Of a stretch of 64,000 nucleotides of DNA, positions 2-60,686 are shown in pieces. Position 1 is the stretch's first letter. Every line of letters starts with the position of its first letter. The stretch spans positions 372,001 to 436,000 of the forward strand of contig NZ_AP018165.1 of assembly GCF_002356335.1 (NCBI RefSeq). The letters are read 5' to 3'. The position numbers were made by a program, and so were the translations under genes. The notes below the pieces were generated by a model that was not told the DNA's origin, searched no databases, and saw only the letters and a list, made by a program, of their open reading frames with translations. Source of the DNA: [Mycobacterium] stephanolepidis (lineage in GTDB: Bacteria > Actinomycetota > Actinomycetes > Mycobacteriales > Mycobacteriaceae).

Positions 2-322
2 GGTTGGGTGATGGACTACCCATCGATCTACAACTTCCTGGAGTCGTTGTACGGCACGGTGGCGCTGCCACCGGCGGGCTCCAATTACGTGTTCTATAGC
101 AATCCGGCATTCGACGAGCTGTTGCGGCAGGGGAACAACCAACCGACTGTGGAACTGGCCACCAAGGCGTATCAGAAGGCAGAAGACCTGTTGTTCAAGG
201 ACCTTCCGGCCGCGCCGTTGTTCTATGAGGTCAATCAGGCGGTGCATTCCAAGCGGGTGAGCAACGTCAAGATCAGTATCCAGGACTGCATCGAGTACGC
301 CGATGTGGAGGTCGTGCAGTGA
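2..322 (+). CDS. dppA: Dipeptide ABC transporter substrate-binding protein, C-terminal end (partial)
   Basis: This is the last 106 codons of a gene that begins upstream of the window; the frame is open to the left edge and enters as GWVMDYPSIYNFLESLYG. The sequence resembles the C-terminal lobe of family 5 periplasmic binding proteins, with a WVMDYPS-like segment and PAAPLFYEVNQAVHS near the end. It would be a cell-surface lipoprotein that captures oligopeptides for the permease encoded next door. Its stop overlaps the GTG of the following permease gene (GTGA), so translation is probably coupled. The assignment as DppA (Rv3666c-like) rests mainly on the dppBCD genes that follow; the lipobox and N-terminal domain are outside the window. 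Confidence 0.88.
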   Translation, partial: GWVMDYPSIYNFLESLYGTVALPPAGSNYVFYSNPAFDELLRQGNNQPTVELATKAYQKAEDLLFKDLPAAPLFYEVNQAVHSKRVSNVKISIQDCIEYADVEVVQ

Positions 323-55597: not shown

Positions 55598-55673
55598 GCT
55601 GCCCTAGCTCAGTCGGTAGAGCAATTCACTCGTAATGAATAGGTCGGGGGTTCGATTCCCCCGGGCAGCTCCA
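55598..55673 (+). tRNA. thrT: tRNA-Thr (anticodon CGT)
   Basis: The 76-base gene folds as a cloverleaf. The acceptor GCTGCCC pairs with GGGCAGC, the anticodon stem ATTCA pairs with TGAAT around CTCGTAA (anticodon CGT at 55631-55633), and the T stem GGGGG/CCCCC encloses TTCGATT. CCA is encoded. It reads ACG threonine codons. Confidence 0.97.
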
Positions 55674-55683
55674 TGCGGATTAC

Positions 55684-56493
55684 ATGGTTCGGAAGCACAT
55701 GGAATTAGACGGACGTCTTCGTCGAGATGGTTGTGTGCTGAGGTACTCCGATACCGCTGGTTCGGGCATTCCGGTCGTATTCATCCATGGAGCGGGCGCC
55801 GACCATGCCATGTTCGAATCCCAGCGTGATGTCCTCCGGGCCGCCGGATTTCGCGTCGTGCTCTTCGATTTGCGCGGACACGGAGTCTCCAGACCTAATA
55901 CCACCGCCATCACAGCGGACGTACTGGTAACAGACGTGGAAGCGTTGATCGCCCACCTCGATCTGGACCGCCCAATCCTCATCGGACTTTCTCTAGGCGG
56001 CAACATCGGACAGCGCCTTGTCAGGCAAGCGCCGCAGGGCTACCGCGCGCTGGGCGTTTTCGACTCAACCTGGAACACCGGTCCGTTGTCCTGGCTCGAA
56101 AGGTCGTCATTGCGACTCTCTGCTCCGCTGCTGCGGTTCATACCTGCCCGGTCCTTGCCAGGTGTCATGGCGGATGCCTCGGCGGTTACCGAGAGCGCGC
56201 GTGCCGACCTGCTCCGGGCCTTCGCGGCGATATCGAAGGCCGAGTTTCTCGAGATATGGCGCGCGACCACCGAGTTCGTTAAGCCGGATAGCGATTACCG
56301 CACACAGTTGCCACTGCTGCTGATGCGTGGAGAAAAGGATCGCACCGGAAACATCGCGACATCAATGTCGCAGTGGGCAATCGCAGATGGCGTCGCCGAG
56401 GTGGTAATTCCCGATGCCGGTCATGTAGTTACGTTGGATGCCCCCGAACCTGTCAATGCGGCGCTCGTCGCCTTTCTCCGGTACTTGACGTAA
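55684..56493 (+). CDS. Alpha/beta hydrolase
   Basis: This is a 269-residue hydrolase of the esterase/epoxide-hydrolase type. The oxyanion motif is VVFIHGAGADHAMFESQRDV, the nucleophile elbow ILIGLSLGGNIGQRLV (Ser near residue 104), the acid Asp in LMRGEKDRTGNIATS and the His in VIPDAGHVVTLDAPEPV. All triad residues are present. The ATG at 55684 begins 11 bases after the tRNA; an ATG at 55699 is an alternative. The substrate is unknown. Confidence 0.88.
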   Translation: MVRKHMELDGRLRRDGCVLRYSDTAGSGIPVVFIHGAGADHAMFESQRDVLRAAGFRVVLFDLRGHGVSRPNTTAITADVLVTDVEALIAHLDLDRPILIGLSLGGNIGQRLVRQAPQGYRALGVFDSTWNTGPLSWLERSSLRLSAPLLRFIPARSLPGVMADASAVTESARADLLRAFAAISKAEFLEIWRATTEFVKPDSDYRTQLPLLLMRGEKDRTGNIATSMSQWAIADGVAEVVIPDAGHVVTLDAPEPVNAALVAFLRYLT

Positions 56494-56555
56494 ATCACTT
56501 CGCTGCCGGGTACTTCTGCTGTGGGCACACCGCGGGACCGCTAGCATCATTGCTC

Positions 56556-57074
56556 ATGTGGTTTGCACAGCGCGATGCCGGCCGTTACGGGCCGGTTGTT
56601 GCTGCGGTGGACCAGGTGCTGGCGGTCACTGCCGCGGGGCGGGCTTCAATCGAGGATGTTGCTCGGACCTGGGCTCGGGCAAACGGCCGAGTGATGGATA
56701 TCGAAGACGTGCCGCTCTCTGCTGGTGTGTTCGGACAGTGGATATCGTTCCCGGACCGGGATCTGGTGCAAGTGGGGCAAGGTGTCGTGGGTCGCGATCG
56801 CACGATTGCTCACGAACTGGGGCACATGGTGTTGGGTCACCGGGGGCAGCCAGTTGTTGATTTTGCGGCAGAACATGTACGCGCGGTGCCACCGGAGCTG
56901 GTGGCCCGCATGCTGCAACGTAGCTGCGGGACTGATGACTTAGCTCATGCCGACTGCTGGCCCGAGGATGAACTGGCGGCCGAACGTTTTGCCGGCCTGC
57001 TCATCCGCCGGATGCGGGCGGGGCGCGCAGTTCGCACGCGGTGGAGTCCGTACCTGGACGACGCACTGGGGTGA
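56556..57074 (+). CDS. ImmA/IrrE-type zinc metalloprotease domain protein
   Basis: This is a 172-residue protein with the zinc motif TIAHELGHMVLGHRG (HExxH, near residue 88) and a downstream acidic region (CWPEDELAAERFAGLLIRRM) giving the third ligand. This is the ImmA/IrrE (DUF955) pattern, peptidases that cleave regulators in mobile elements or stress pathways. It starts with ATG at 56556 and its stop overlaps the GTG of the first membrane protein gene. Together with the facing EspR-like regulator it forms a protease-regulator-membrane protein set. A natural target would be that regulator, which is inference. Confidence 0.85.
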   Translation: MWFAQRDAGRYGPVVAAVDQVLAVTAAGRASIEDVARTWARANGRVMDIEDVPLSAGVFGQWISFPDRDLVQVGQGVVGRDRTIAHELGHMVLGHRGQPVVDFAAEHVRAVPPELVARMLQRSCGTDDLAHADCWPEDELAAERFAGLLIRRMRAGRAVRTRWSPYLDDALG

Positions 57075-58214
57075 TCGACCCCTCGGCATGGCAGGTCATG
57101 CAGATTGTGCGCATCGTTTTTCTGCTCTGCTTCCTGCCGGTTCTGCTGTACAGGATCTGGCGGCTCTGGCGGTACCCGGCATCTGCCCCGGTCATCGCGA
57201 TCACCGCCTTCGGGGTGGTCATGTGGTTTTGGCTGCTTCTGCTATCGGACTTCTTATGGTCCGTGCTGCCGGTGCAAATACGTGCCGCAAGCATGGCCGG
57301 GTGGTTTGTCACCACGGTGGCTGCCTGTGTGCAGATTTTTGTTCTCGGCATTAGCGGTTCCGTTTCCCCAGCGCGGATGAGACGCGCTTGGCGAGTCGTT
57401 CTCGGGGTAACCGCTGTCGTTCTGGTGGTGGTCGCCGTAGCCGTGCAACACAGCCAAGCCCTGCTGGCCACGGAAGACCTGAAAGAACTCACCAACGCGC
57501 TTCTCGATGGCGCGGATAGTGGGGCCGTTGTCGCGTCTTTGGTCAGTAATGGTTACCTAACGGCGACTCTGGTCCAGCTGATATGGGCTGGGTATCGTCA
57601 TGCCGATTCGACACCAGTCGGCACCGGCCTGGGACTGCTGGCGGTTGCGTCCTCGTTTGAAGTTGTTTGTGTCTTTGTCGGGGGCATCTGGCGTCCTCTA
57701 ACCGGCGGACACGACGTGATCTCGGCCAGGTACGGGATGGTGTTGCAGAGCGTGAGCGGCGGCGTCGGCATAACCTTGATGGCCGTGGGCTTTCTCTGGC
57801 CCCCCCGTAGTGCTGCGTATTCAGGCGCGGCGCCAGGAGCGACGTCTGCGGCCGCTCCATGATGAGTTTGCCCATTTGTTCCCCCAGCTGTTCCCTCCCA
57901 TGGAATCGCAAATCCGACTGTCGGACAAAGTATTTGAATGGTCCACGCATATTCAGGACGGCCTGACGCTTTTGGCGCAAAGTCGTGAGCTTCCCCTCGG
58001 AACCGATACCCCAGCTCCCAAAGACGGGTCAGCACGCGCTCTTGCTGTAGCAAATTGGATTGTTGGTCAAGCTGATTCAGGATTCGGTGGCGAATGGCTG
58101 CACGCTCCGAGTGGGGTGAGTGATGAGGCTTGGGTACTGGCAATTGCCGACGCGTACCGCAATCACACAGAAGTGCGGTTGCATCCGGAAGTGAACGTGA
58201 GTGTCTGCCGGTGA
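57071..58214 (+). pseudogene. MAB_1171c-like membrane protein, copy 1, frameshifted in a C7 run
   Basis: The frame from the GTG at 57071 gives about seven membrane helices (residues 10-250, e.g. LLCFLPVLLYRIWRLWRYPA) and then breaks at 57862. The second frame, 57810-58214, encodes the expected soluble end (RRLRPLHDEFAHLFPQLFPP, IRLSDKVFEWSTHIQDGLTL). The switch is at seven C (57800-57806): with six C the protein would read WPPVVLRIQA, just as copy 2 reads WPPLMLRVQA, and would have 380 residues. So copy 1 is a single-base frameshift from intact. It may be a phase-variable state, a real mutation or a sequencing error. Function is unknown; putative transporter. Confidence 0.85.
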
Positions 58215-59368
58215 GTGCAGACGTGTCTGCCTGGGAGAGCCTGCAAGCTGTGCGTCCAGTGATTCTGGCTTGTTTCCTGCCGATCTTGCTGTATCGAGTC
58301 TGGCGGGTGGTGCGACAGCCGACATCTGTTCCGGCTATAGCGGCAATAGCTTTCGGTGTCTCGTGGTGGCTTTGGTTTCTGGTCTTCACTGACGAGGTGT
58401 GGGCAGTGCTGCCGCCGATTGCGCATGCAGTCACCATCGGCGGTTGGGCGGCCATCTCGATTGGCGCTTGTTTGCAGGTCTTTGTCATCGGTGTTTCTGG
58501 CGATACATCCCCCGCGCGGATCCGGCGAGGGTTGCGGATCACCTCACTGGTGGCGGTCATCGCGCTCGTCTTGGTTGCAGTGTTGGTGAGTCGTAGCCGG
58601 GTTCTCATGAGCACCGGGGACGTATATGAACTTGCCGCGGAGCTATATTCGGGCGGCGACCCTTGGGCCGTCGCCGCTCTGGTCATGAGTTGTGTGTACC
58701 TCATGTACGTGGAGGTTCAACTCGTGTGGGTCGGGTTTCGACACGCGGACTCCACTCCCGTTGGCGTAGGCCTGGGGTTGATGGCAGCGGCGGGGATATT
58801 TCAGTTCGTTGCGACGTTGTTCGGAGGAGTCTGGGCTCCCTTGGCCCGTGGGGAGGGGCTTGTGGGCAGCACATTTGGGCGGTGGCTGCAGACCTGGCCC
58901 GGTTGTATTGCGGCGATACTGATGGTGGCGGGATTTGTCTGGCCGCCGCTGATGCTGCGCGTTCAAGCGTATCGTGTCGTGGAGCGCCTGAGGCCGCTTC
59001 ACGACGGCCTGGCAGGTCTCTTTCCAGGACTGTTTCCGCCGAAGCAGTCGCGAATACGATTATCTGACTTAGCTTTTGAATGGTCGACGCAGATTCAGGA
59101 CGGCCTTACCCTGCTTGCGCAGAGGCGCGAGGTGCCGCCGAAAACGGATCATCCGATGCCGGGAAGCCGAATCGACCGTATCGATGATGTGACGAATTGG
59201 CTTACCGGCAAACCAGTCCCGGGATTCAGTGCGGAATGGCTCCGAACTCCTGGCGGGGTGAGTGATGAAGAATGGGTACTCGAGATAGTGGACGCCTACC
59301 GGGAACGTCAGGAAGACTTGGAGGCGCCGGCTTCCTTGTCGGGTATGCCCTCAACCTTGCGTAAGTGA
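58211..59368 (+). CDS. MAB_1171c-like putative transporter, copy 2
   Basis: This 385-residue protein has seven predicted membrane helices (residues 12-265, e.g. ACFLPILLYRVWRVVRQPTS, FRHADSTPVGVGLGLMAAAG) and a soluble C-terminal domain (RLRPLHDGLAGLFPGLFPPK, IRLSDLAFEWSTQIQDGLTL, GVSDEEWVLEIVDAYRE). It is a tandem duplicate of copy 1, with about 40-50% identity by eye over the full length. The GTG at 58211 overlaps the end of copy 1. Its last 61 bases overlap the 3' end of the facing EspR-like gene. Similar proteins occur next to XRE regulators and ImmA/IrrE genes in actinobacteria, as here. Confidence 0.85.
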   Translation: MSADVSAWESLQAVRPVILACFLPILLYRVWRVVRQPTSVPAIAAIAFGVSWWLWFLVFTDEVWAVLPPIAHAVTIGGWAAISIGACLQVFVIGVSGDTSPARIRRGLRITSLVAVIALVLVAVLVSRSRVLMSTGDVYELAAELYSGGDPWAVAALVMSCVYLMYVEVQLVWVGFRHADSTPVGVGLGLMAAAGIFQFVATLFGGVWAPLARGEGLVGSTFGRWLQTWPGCIAAILMVAGFVWPPLMLRVQAYRVVERLRPLHDGLAGLFPGLFPPKQSRIRLSDLAFEWSTQIQDGLTLLAQRREVPPKTDHPMPGSRIDRIDDVTNWLTGKPVPGFSAEWLRTPGGVSDEEWVLEIVDAYRERQEDLEAPASLSGMPSTLRK

Positions 59369-59730
59369 TCGACCATGTCGGCGATCGCCTGTCGACTGTT
59401 CTCGGAGAGCGCGTAGCTGCGCTGCGCGATCTCACGAACCTTCGAGTCACGCAGCTGCACAAGCCAATCCAGATCGCGATTCACCGATGCGGCGTAGTCG
59501 GCGTCATAGAAATACGCAGGGCTCACCTGAAAGAACTCGGCCAGTGCTGTGACGATGTCCGGCGCCGGGTTCGATCGTTCGCCCTTGCGCAGGAGTGACA
59601 GATAGGGCGAGGACACCTCGACGCCGCGCTCGCCCAGCGCGGTGACTACCTCGTTGAGGGAATAAGGTCCACGCCCGGCCGGATGCACAGTGGCAAACAA
59701 ATGGCTCAAGCGCTGCGAAAAGTCTGGCAC
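59308..59730 (-). CDS. EspR-like XRE-family nucleoid/transcription regulator
   Basis: This 140-residue protein closely resembles EspR (Rv3849) in layout: SQRLSHLFATVHPAGRGPYS, NEVVTALGERGVEVSSPYLS and LLRKGERSNPAPDIVTALAE form an N-terminal HTH. AQRSYALSENSRQAIADMVD and HLRKVEGI form the C-terminal dimer helix. EspR controls ESX-1 genes and shapes the nucleoid. This is a paralog, here facing the ImmA-membrane protein operon and overlapping its end. The GTG at 59730 follows GAGGGGG. It may regulate that operon and may itself be a target of the ImmA-like protease. Confidence 0.88.
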   Translation of the reverse strand: MPDFSQRLSHLFATVHPAGRGPYSLNEVVTALGERGVEVSSPYLSLLRKGERSNPAPDIVTALAEFFQVSPAYFYDADYAASVNRDLDWLVQLRDSKVREIAQRSYALSENSRQAIADMVDHLRKVEGIPDKEAGASKSS

Positions 59731-59993
59731 AGCACCCCCTCACATACTTTCACTTCGCAGCCCAACGATACACGCACATGCTGTGCTGCTCATCGTAGGT
59801 CTGCGGGTGTCTGAGCGATATGCAACTTATCGGAAGGGTAAGTGATTGACAAGGAATATTTACTGACAGTAATGTCCGGGGTGTTCGTTCGGCTAACCAA
59901 GGTCGATCGGGCTCGGCTGGTCAATCGCTGTGCTCATCGTGGGGTTGAGCACAGCGAATGGTCAGCCGATTTTCGTATGAACCCTGCTGCTGC

Positions 59994-60686
59994 TCAGCGG
60001 AGACCCAGTGCGCTGTGATGCACCAGTGCACCGGTAATCAGGACGACTCCGAGGCCCAGGAATATGACCCGAATCGCGGTGGGGCCGTGTCGCGTCACCG
60101 ATCGCACCAGCCCTCGCTGCACCCGCCGCGCGCGAGGGGATCGCCGCGTCGACAGTACGAGAATCAGCAGACTGGGAAGAACGGCGACTAAGCCATAGCC
60201 GACCAACAGCAGCGGCCACATCGACGGCAGCGGGTGACGTGAGGCGAGCATCGCCAGCGCACTCAGATACGGAACAGATGTGGGTGCCTCTGCGTAGCCC
60301 AAGGCGAGACCCACAAGCGCGAGGAGCCATGGATGGCGTCGCGCAACAGTAAGTATCCATGGTGGCGTCACCGGCTCGGTGAACCAGGTCAGTGCCGCAA
60401 CGGCGATCAAAAGAATGCCGATGATCAGTTGCGCCCAGTATCGGGTAGACGGGGTGATGTCTGAACCGCCGGCTACGTCGGTCAGCGAGCGCACACCGAG
60501 CACGGTCGCCAGTCCGAAGGTGAACAGCGCCACAAATAGACCGGTGACGAAGCTGAGGCCGCCGGGAAAGGCTGATCGGCGTTCCAGCCGGGTCACATAG
60601 ACGATTGTCGTAGCGACACCGATGTTGAGTACGTTGAGGGCATCCAGGCAGGCGAATCCTGCGAACGCCAGCAACAGGGTGAGCAC
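59994..60686 (-). CDS. GAP-family (LysE-like) membrane protein
   Basis: This 230-residue protein has six hydrophobic segments. The start LLLAFAGFACLDALNVLNIG and the middle LALGYAEAPTSVPYLSALAM are typical of the GAP/Sap family, related to LysE exporters. It contains basic loops (RRSPRARRVQRG). In mycobacteria GAP proteins are tied to glycopeptidolipid export. The ATG at 60686 is the start. No operon partner is evident. Confidence 0.82.
   Translation of the reverse strand: MLTLLLAFAGFACLDALNVLNIGVATTIVYVTRLERRSAFPGGLSFVTGLFVALFTFGLATVLGVRSLTDVAGGSDITPSTRYWAQLIIGILLIAVAALTWFTEPVTPPWILTVARRHPWLLALVGLALGYAEAPTSVPYLSALAMLASRHPLPSMWPLLLVGYGLVAVLPSLLILVLSTRRSPRARRVQRGLVRSVTRHGPTAIRVIFLGLGVVLITGALVHHSALGLR

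What the first reader, a model, noticed from the sequence alone, without database searches (positions are those of the whole stretch)
56556..59730. ImmA-like protease, paired transporters and EspR-like regulator as one unit
The protease and both membrane genes overlap by GTGA, and the EspR-like gene faces them and overlaps the operon end by 61 bp. ImmA/IrrE proteases usually cleave XRE regulators. A signal read by the membrane proteins could trigger cleavage of an EspR-like DNA-binding protein, a possible membrane-to-nucleoid switch not described in mycobacteria as far as I know.
Basis: inference. Interest (0 to 1): 0.7.

Follow-up and report, generated by a model that had tools for sequence, protein, structure and literature searches.

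The report
Protease, membrane protein and EspR module
A bacterial DNA-binding protein related to the tuberculosis regulator EspR sits in a conserved gene group with a protease and a seven-helix membrane protein, which suggests that mycobacteria can switch this kind of regulator off by cutting it in response to a signal at the membrane.

Summary
The layout is real: an ImmA-type protease, two membrane-protein copies (the first frame-broken) and a facing EspR-like gene, overlapping by 4, 4 and 61 bp. It is not a local accident. In 56 of 60 hand-picked mycobacterial protease loci the order is protease, membrane protein, facing EspR-family gene; in 53 of these 56 the regulator is of the espR locus itself. 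The window holds a diverged second module. The protease was found in 230 of 396 genomes, EspR in 389. In 20 of 20 inspected protease-less espR loci the protease and membrane genes are cleanly missing. EspR residues 89-108 are nearly frozen with the module and drift without it (26 of 218 against 148 of 363 changes; scan with column permutation p 0.002), but absence rests on only three independent events. Best reading: the membrane protein controls ImmA, which cuts EspR there and ends dimerisation, as IrrE does to DdrO. Cleavage is untested. Known kind (protease/XRE pair), new variant (membrane partner, nucleoid-protein substrate).

The parts
56556..57074 (+). ImmA/IrrE-type metallopeptidase, 172 aa, HEXXH at residues 86-90, no further domain found
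   Evidence: HELGH and E139/E143 invariant in 27 rows; Peptidase_M78 E 0.009, below gathering; model matches PrpR 6cz6, IrrE 3dti, PprI 8sln; prob 0.92-0.96, E 0.04-0.09
57071..57862 (+). membrane protein copy 1, N-terminal piece (frame ends early)
   Evidence: MAB_1171c_fam E 1.6e-9
57810..58214 (+). membrane protein copy 1, C-terminal piece in another frame; searched apart from the first
   Evidence: own TM profile E 2e-54
58211..59368 (+). membrane protein copy 2, 385 aa: seven predicted membrane helices plus helical C-terminal part, probably cytosolic
   Evidence: model pLDDT 78; hydropathy
59308..59730 (-). EspR-like XRE regulator, 140 aa (paralogue of EspR)
   Evidence: E 3e-34 to EspR chains; 47% to espR-locus EspR of L146
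59308..59368 (.). 61-bp antisense overlap of copy 2 and EspR-like gene, constant in 12 of 12 loci of this type
59860..59872 (.). perfect palindrome TTACTGNCAGTAA upstream of the EspR-like gene, candidate operator
59926..59956 (-). conserved hairpin between the SfLAP-like gene and the EspR-like gene, terminator-like but without a T run
   Evidence: z -8.5 for 59900-59965

Best explanation
A protease-controlled transcription switch with a membrane arm. The seven-helix membrane protein (N-terminus outside, helical C-terminal domain in the cytosol) responds to a condition in the envelope and passes it to the small cytosolic ImmA-type protease, which has no sensor domain of its own. Active ImmA cuts the EspR-family regulator in its C-terminal part (best candidate region residues 104-110, in espR-locus numbering). 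Loss of the C-terminus stops dimerisation and DNA bridging, and the regulon changes. Shown: the unit, its conservation, joint absence of protease and membrane gene, local constraint in EspR. Inferred: cleavage, its site, membrane control, direction of signal. The window holds a second copy of the module, seen here in Mycobacteroides-type genomes, with its own regulator and probably its own operator.
For: Order protease, membrane protein, facing EspR in 56 of 60 loci, 53 of them of espR-locus type. L146 and L144 regulators match PDB EspR at E 8e-68 and 3e-66. 228 of 230 protease-bearing genomes have EspR (lists compared by hand; the other two are assemblies of 1.9 and 2.8 Mb). Clean absence of the module in 20 of 20 inspected protease-less espR loci; gap from espR to the next conserved gene median 121 bp (77 rows) against 3036 bp (54 rows). 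EspR 89-108 changes: 26 of 218 with the module, 148 of 363 without; 104-107: 4 against 57; residues 1-60: 69 against 43. Zinc-site residues invariant. Weak capP/capH matches. Published: DdrO is cut in a loop of its C-terminal dimer domain (passages); EspR lacking 10 C-terminal residues no longer dimerises or activates espACD (passages).
Against: No cleavage data. Absence of the module rests on 3 independent events, so a sign test cannot reach 0.05, and most drift lies in one large clade. The segment was found by scanning; shorter windows give permutation p 0.006-0.014. The segment could contact the membrane protein or another lost partner instead. The same published passage says the shortened EspR still binds DNA, so a cut need not abolish binding. 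The wider 'IAxR..LS' pattern is partly kept in module-less EspR. At the espR locus the membrane part of the membrane protein is more conserved than its C-terminal 130 residues (column identity 0.82 against 0.69), which does not suit a fast-changing sensor. The module occurs without an EspR relative (L143, L186, L188) and EspR relatives occur on plasmids without it (143 records against 34 with the protease; example). EspR motifs lie upstream of espR but not of ImmA. Peptidase_M78 match is below the Pfam cut-off.
Confidence: 0.6

Rival explanations
1. ImmA does not cut EspR; it and the membrane protein bind the EspR C-terminal part and tether it to the membrane (control by sequestration), the constraint on 89-108 being a binding surface.
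For: The constraint covers about 20 residues, wider than one cleavage site.
Against: HEXXH and two glutamates invariant in 27 rows; characterised relatives are proteases (passages).
Confidence: 0.17
2. Toxin-antitoxin or defence module: the membrane protein or the protease is a toxin and the XRE protein the antitoxin/repressor.
For: Annotators call a Streptomyces relative 'toxin'; Rhodococcus copies ride on plasmids; COG2856-Xre pairs were proposed as a toxin-antitoxin kind in 2009 (passages of PMC2701414); membrane genes vary in number.
Against: In the genus sample it is mostly one copy per genome at a fixed locus, and where it is absent espR stays. A related ImmA (P0082) and the window's EspR-like protein matched none of 50,697 phage records at E 1e-3. 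PADLOC gives only weak capP, capH and RmrA matches.
Confidence: 0.1
3. Neighbourhood by inheritance only: genes are linked but act separately, and the EspR drift is a clade effect.
For: Only three independent events of absence, most rows in one clade.
Against: Same facing order in Nocardia farcinica without the flank genes tested, and on Rhodococcus plasmids with one more gene inserted and other neighbours; XRE near 19 of 27 class-wide MAB_1171c loci; the drift is local while residues 1-88 are more conserved without the module; both small independent losses also changed residue 104 or 106.
Confidence: 0.13

Closest known systems
IrrE(PprI)/DdrO of Deinococcus
   Same: IrrE-fold metalloprotease and small XRE repressor cut in its C-terminal dimer domain (passages of PMC10904395); EspR profile reaches DdrO chains at E 9e-4 over the HTH
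   Different: IrrE carries a GAF-like domain and responds to ssDNA (same passages); no membrane protein partner (recalled); DdrO is a DNA-damage repressor
CapP/CapH regulators of CBASS
   Same: separate protease and transcription factor pair (named in a passage of PMC10904395); weak profile matches of both proteins (capP 8.5e-5, capH 1.2e-3 for the espR locus L146; capP 1.2e-3, capH 2.9e-4 for the window)
   Different: belongs to a defence operon; no membrane protein in the pair (recalled)
ImmA/ImmR of ICEBs1
   Same: ImmA-type protease needed to inactivate an XRE repressor (stated in a passage of PMC2701414)
   Different: on a mobile element; no seven-helix partner (recalled)
BlaR1/BlaI, MecR1/MecI
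   Same: membrane signal leads to proteolysis of a repressor (recalled)
   Different: sensor and protease are one membrane protein; repressor is not XRE/EspR-like (recalled)
MAB_1171c family / DUF6545 with XRE and ImmA in actinobacteria
   Same: same three components: of 27 sampled loci 24 with ImmA, 19 with XRE
   Different: function not described in the rows that my searches listed; regulator usually on the protease's strand (16 of 19) rather than facing

Membership tests
ImmA/IrrE (M78) metallopeptidases | HEXXH zinc motif with downstream acidic ligand | tested here: met
   HELGH and E139, E143 invariant in 27 rows; that one of these Glu is the ligand is recalled by analogy
ImmA/IrrE (M78) metallopeptidases | Pfam Peptidase_M78 at gathering score | tested here: not met
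   16.2 bits against 22; espR-locus copies 17.8 and 16.7
ImmA/IrrE (M78) metallopeptidases | IrrE fold | tested here: inconclusive
   best matches 6cz6, 3dti, 6d2s, 8sln with prob 0.92-0.96 but E 0.04-0.09 and TM 0.35-0.40; model pLDDT 72
ImmA/IrrE (M78) metallopeptidases | cleaves an XRE regulator | not testable with these tools
   needs biochemistry
EspR | sequence relation over the whole length | tested here: met
   window copy residues 3-129, E 3e-34; espR-locus copies E 8e-68 and 3e-66
EspR | orthologue of espR rather than paralogue | tested here: not met
   window copy is 47% identical to the EspR of L146, and M. chelonae S00154 holds both a window-type module (L006) and an espR-locus module (L144)
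MAB_1171c family transporter (NF042915) | NCBIfam cut-off 100 bits | tested here: not met
   37.3 and 43.4 bits; espR-locus proteins 44.8 and 26.4
MAB_1171c family transporter (NF042915) | transport activity | not testable with these tools
   the one paper found calls MAB_1171c a transporter and reports about half the biofilm in its mutant (passages)
CBASS CapP/CapH | CBASS operon around the pair | tested here: not met
   neighbours are a Thr tRNA, a hydrolase and an SfLAP-like gene or sodA and a DUF6474 gene
Type II toxin-antitoxin | toxicity relieved by the regulator | not testable with these tools
   no expression data

The most novel reading that the evidence does not exclude
EspR, known as a nucleoid-associated virulence regulator, is ancestrally the substrate of a membrane-controlled ImmA protease; more than half of the sampled genomes of the genus still have this switch, while a large clade (and, judged by its EspR sequence type alone, M. 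tuberculosis) has lost it and runs EspR without this proteolytic control.
Probability: 0.45. Interest if true: 0.87.

Novelty: new variant of a known kind. Interest (0 to 1): 0.74.

Why it matters
The EspR papers of which I saw passages treat its control through autoregulation, growth phase and 5'UTR variants. If EspR belongs to a protease switch, the question of how its activity is turned off becomes directly testable, and differences in EspR regulation between mycobacteria gain a concrete candidate cause. It would also give a function to a family of seven-helix proteins now labelled 'putative transporter'.

Tried and rejected
Transporter function: only a sub-threshold family match; the fold search of the membrane model gives weak seven-helix receptor-like matches, the listed ones all with E above 0.4, which I do not count as kinship. 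PDB sequence search with the ImmA profile found nothing at E 0.1. A pattern after the published EspR inverted repeat: 0 matches in the window. EspR motif upstream of ImmA at the espR locus: not enriched (0.16 per 250 bp against 0.24 shuffled, 55 loci), although strongly enriched upstream of espR (3.53 against 0.40). Phage origin: no phage record matched P0082 or the window's EspR-like protein. Promoter and terminator scans of 56400-60100 gave no more than shuffles. Literature: no row listed by the searches (1 of 1; 15 of 15; 20 of 56; 25 of 50; 20 of 130; 15 of 3,770; 5 of 5; 11 of 11) shows, by title, start of abstract or term counts, a link of EspR to an ImmA/IrrE protease; the library holds open-licence papers only. 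The idea that module-less EspR loses the whole motif was dropped, since the looser pattern persists.
Full report
What is there. The window is most likely from a Mycobacteroides: the second membrane protein is 93% identical to a M. chelonae protein and the protease 97% to one of M. salmoniphilum; no genome is held for the window itself. On the + strand lie an ImmA-type protease (56556-57074), a membrane gene starting with a GTGA overlap at 57071, and a second one (58211-59368) again with a GTGA overlap. An EspR-like gene (59308-59730) faces them and overlaps the last by 61 bp. The first membrane gene is broken: its frame stops at 57862 and the C-terminal piece runs in another frame to 58214, the switch lying at a run of C. 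In M. chelonae strain S00154 the first copy also appears in several pieces, while an intact copy exists elsewhere (P0048). Error, decay or phase variation cannot be told apart here.

A conserved unit. With profiles of the three proteins I mapped fetched loci. The 60 protease loci L145-L204 were chosen by hand from the listed matches, not at random. In 57 of 60 a membrane gene follows the protease on the same strand, in many with a 4-base overlap, and in 56 of 60 an EspR-family gene faces it within 700 bp. The exceptions: L169 (missed by the script because of a long upstream start, although one search shows the same order), L181 (EspR relative 1.6 kb away), and L186 and L188 (membrane gene facing the protease, no EspR relative). 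Loci of the window type carry two or three membrane copies and a constant 61-bp overlap, 12 of 12. The window type lies beside an SfLAP-like gene in 5 of 5 relatives checked and next to holB in 3 of these 5 (L003, L141, L007; not in the stretch held of L001 and L005); in the window a Thr tRNA lies between.

The regulator is usually EspR itself. Of the 56 loci, three (L185, L187, L189) are of window type; the other 53 are of espR-locus type by EspR profile score, 51 of them also by both flank genes. In six protease-bearing genomes examined there is one EspR homologue per genome; in five (G016, G218, G303, G459, G497) it is the module's regulator, in G027 the match is partial and lies 1.6 kb off. 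The L146 and L144 regulators match PDB EspR over 131 residues with E 8e-68 and 3e-66. The window's regulator is a paralogue, 47% identical to that of L146; M. chelonae S00154 holds both module types, the espR-locus one being L144. EspR was found in 389 of 396 genomes at E 1e-25, the protease in 230 of 396 at E 1e-10. Only 8 protease candidates per genome were scored, and one genome counted as protease-less (G376) has the membrane gene beside espR (L270), so 230 is a lower bound. 228 of the 230 have EspR (lists compared by hand).

Clean absence. In 20 of 20 fetched espR loci of protease-less genomes (picked by hand out of the 40) the flanks are the same (sodA, a conserved gene, espR, the DUF6474 gene), and protease and membrane gene are absent. 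The distance from espR to the DUF6474 gene is 121 bp (median of 77 rows) without and 3036 bp (54 rows) with the module, so the 544-aa ORF seen upstream of the protease in L144, L146 and L152 has no room either. Because L144 of M. chelonae has the module at the same place, loss is the simpler reading. On flank-gene trees the presence/absence pattern needs 2 changes (73 rows) or 3 (141 rows).

EspR feels the absence. Among 65 distinct EspR sequences with and 60 without an adjacent facing membrane gene (168 loci in all, three window-type rows among the first), residues 1-88 are more conserved without it (mean entropy by region 0.06-0.16 against 0.24-0.31 bits), but 89-96 (1.12 against 0.37) and 104-108 (1.62 against 0.28) are far freer. 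One row of the 'without' set (L241) had only 2 bases of room and is probably mislabelled. In the 73-row tree the residues 104-108 read ARTVG or ARTIG in 53 of 53 rows with, and neither in 20 of 20 without; in the 141-row tree 63 of 64 rows with (the other, L150, reads ARSVG) and none of 77 without, two of which the expression could not read. Parsimony on the 141-row tree: residues 89-108 take 26 of 218 changes with, 148 of 363 without; best 20-residue window 89-108, Fisher 1.7e-14, column permutation p 0.002; windows of 4, 5 and 8 peak at 103-104 with p 0.006, 0.006 and 0.014. The window was chosen by scan, hence the permutation. The 77 'without' rows include up to 17 genomes twice, which adds no changes if the copies group together. 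Limits: three independent events, the trait agreeing in 2.9 of 3 pairs on average, median p 0.25. The two small losses read SRSVG and ARAVG beside ARTVG relatives. The PDB EspR chain aligned (3r1f; M. tuberculosis, recalled) reads QRAHG there, which is the 'without' type; I did not inspect that genome.

How it could work. Published work says DdrO is cut by IrrE in a loop of its C-terminal dimer domain (passages of PMC10904395) and that EspR lacking ten C-terminal residues neither dimerises nor activates espACD, although it still binds DNA (passages of PMC3315491). A cut near 104-110 would remove more than that. No extra domain was found on the protease, so a signal would have to come from a partner. 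The membrane protein has about seven hydrophobic stretches, a model with seven long helices, the last running on past the membrane, and a helical C-terminal part, which at the espR locus weakly matches DUF6545 (E 9e-4 and 7e-3, below cut-off). Charges of the loops favour the C-terminus inside. Identity falls from regulator to protease to membrane protein in both module types (0.90, 0.84, 0.70 for 54 espR-locus loci; 0.93, 0.74, 0.56 for 11 window-type loci, best membrane copy of each), as one might expect if the membrane protein meets a changing signal. Against that, at the espR locus its membrane part is the better conserved part (0.82 against 0.69), and in the window type the two are equal (0.69, 0.70). 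This step is inference.

Own operator. The window-type regulator has a palindrome TTACTGNCAGTAA 130-142 bp upstream of its start, kept in 11 of 12 aligned loci, with one base changed in L187. It occurs once, at this place, in 6 of 7 genomes with the window-type module and in 0 of 3 other genomes searched. The espR promoters instead keep the EspR core motif TTTGC (3.53 against 0.40 shuffled per 250 bp, 55 loci); protease promoters do not (0.16 against 0.24). So both regulators probably act on their own promoters, and the protease is not visibly under their control.

Wider kin. Nocardia farcinica has the same facing arrangement, without a match to the flank genes tested in the 12 kb held. Three Rhodococcus plasmids insert one gene between membrane gene and regulator, annotated PAP2 in two of them; such proteases were matched on 34 plasmid records, EspR-like proteins on 143, so EspR relatives also occur without the protease. 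Of 27 class-wide MAB_1171c loci (from 17 of 118 genomes), 24 have ImmA within 1.5 kb and 19 an XRE relative within 3 kb, 16 of these on the protease's strand; the profiles had been iterated on these same loci, so these counts are not independent. PADLOC matches are weak: capP, capH and RmrA. None of the rows listed in eight searches shows a paper joining EspR to an ImmA/IrrE protease. The 2009 survey that proposed COG2856-Xre pairs as toxin-antitoxin systems set aside three Xre pairs with membrane proteins (passages of PMC2701414).

Verdict. Unit and conservation are shown; a functional tie between protease and EspR is likely; cleavage and membrane control remain to be tested.

Noticed in passing
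57071-58214: First membrane gene is split by a frame change at a run of C; M. chelonae S00154 (L006/L140) has its first copy in several pieces too, while P0048 is intact.
   Followed up: partly
L142 (Mycobacteroides sp. LB1 genome): Two divergent protease-membrane gene pairs back to back, one ending at an EspR relative: the module is multiplied in this genome.
   Followed up: no
L143, L186, L188: Protease and membrane gene face each other with no EspR relative nearby: an alternative arrangement.
   Followed up: no
L048, L049, L050: Rhodococcus plasmid modules hold one more gene between membrane gene and regulator (annotated PAP2 phosphatase in L048 and L049, hypothetical in L050) and a second HTH gene beyond.
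   Followed up: no
L144:7816-9450: 544-aa ORF upstream of the protease at the espR locus, no Pfam or NCBIfam match; relatives in L146 and L152; no room for it where the module is absent.
   Followed up: partly
59926-59956: Conserved hairpin between the SfLAP-like gene and the EspR-like gene, z -8.5, without a T run.
   Followed up: partly
55598-55673: Thr tRNA (cgt) upstream of the module; possible insertion hot spot, since the genes on this side differ between relatives (holB near in L003, L141, L007 but not L001, L005).
   Followed up: no
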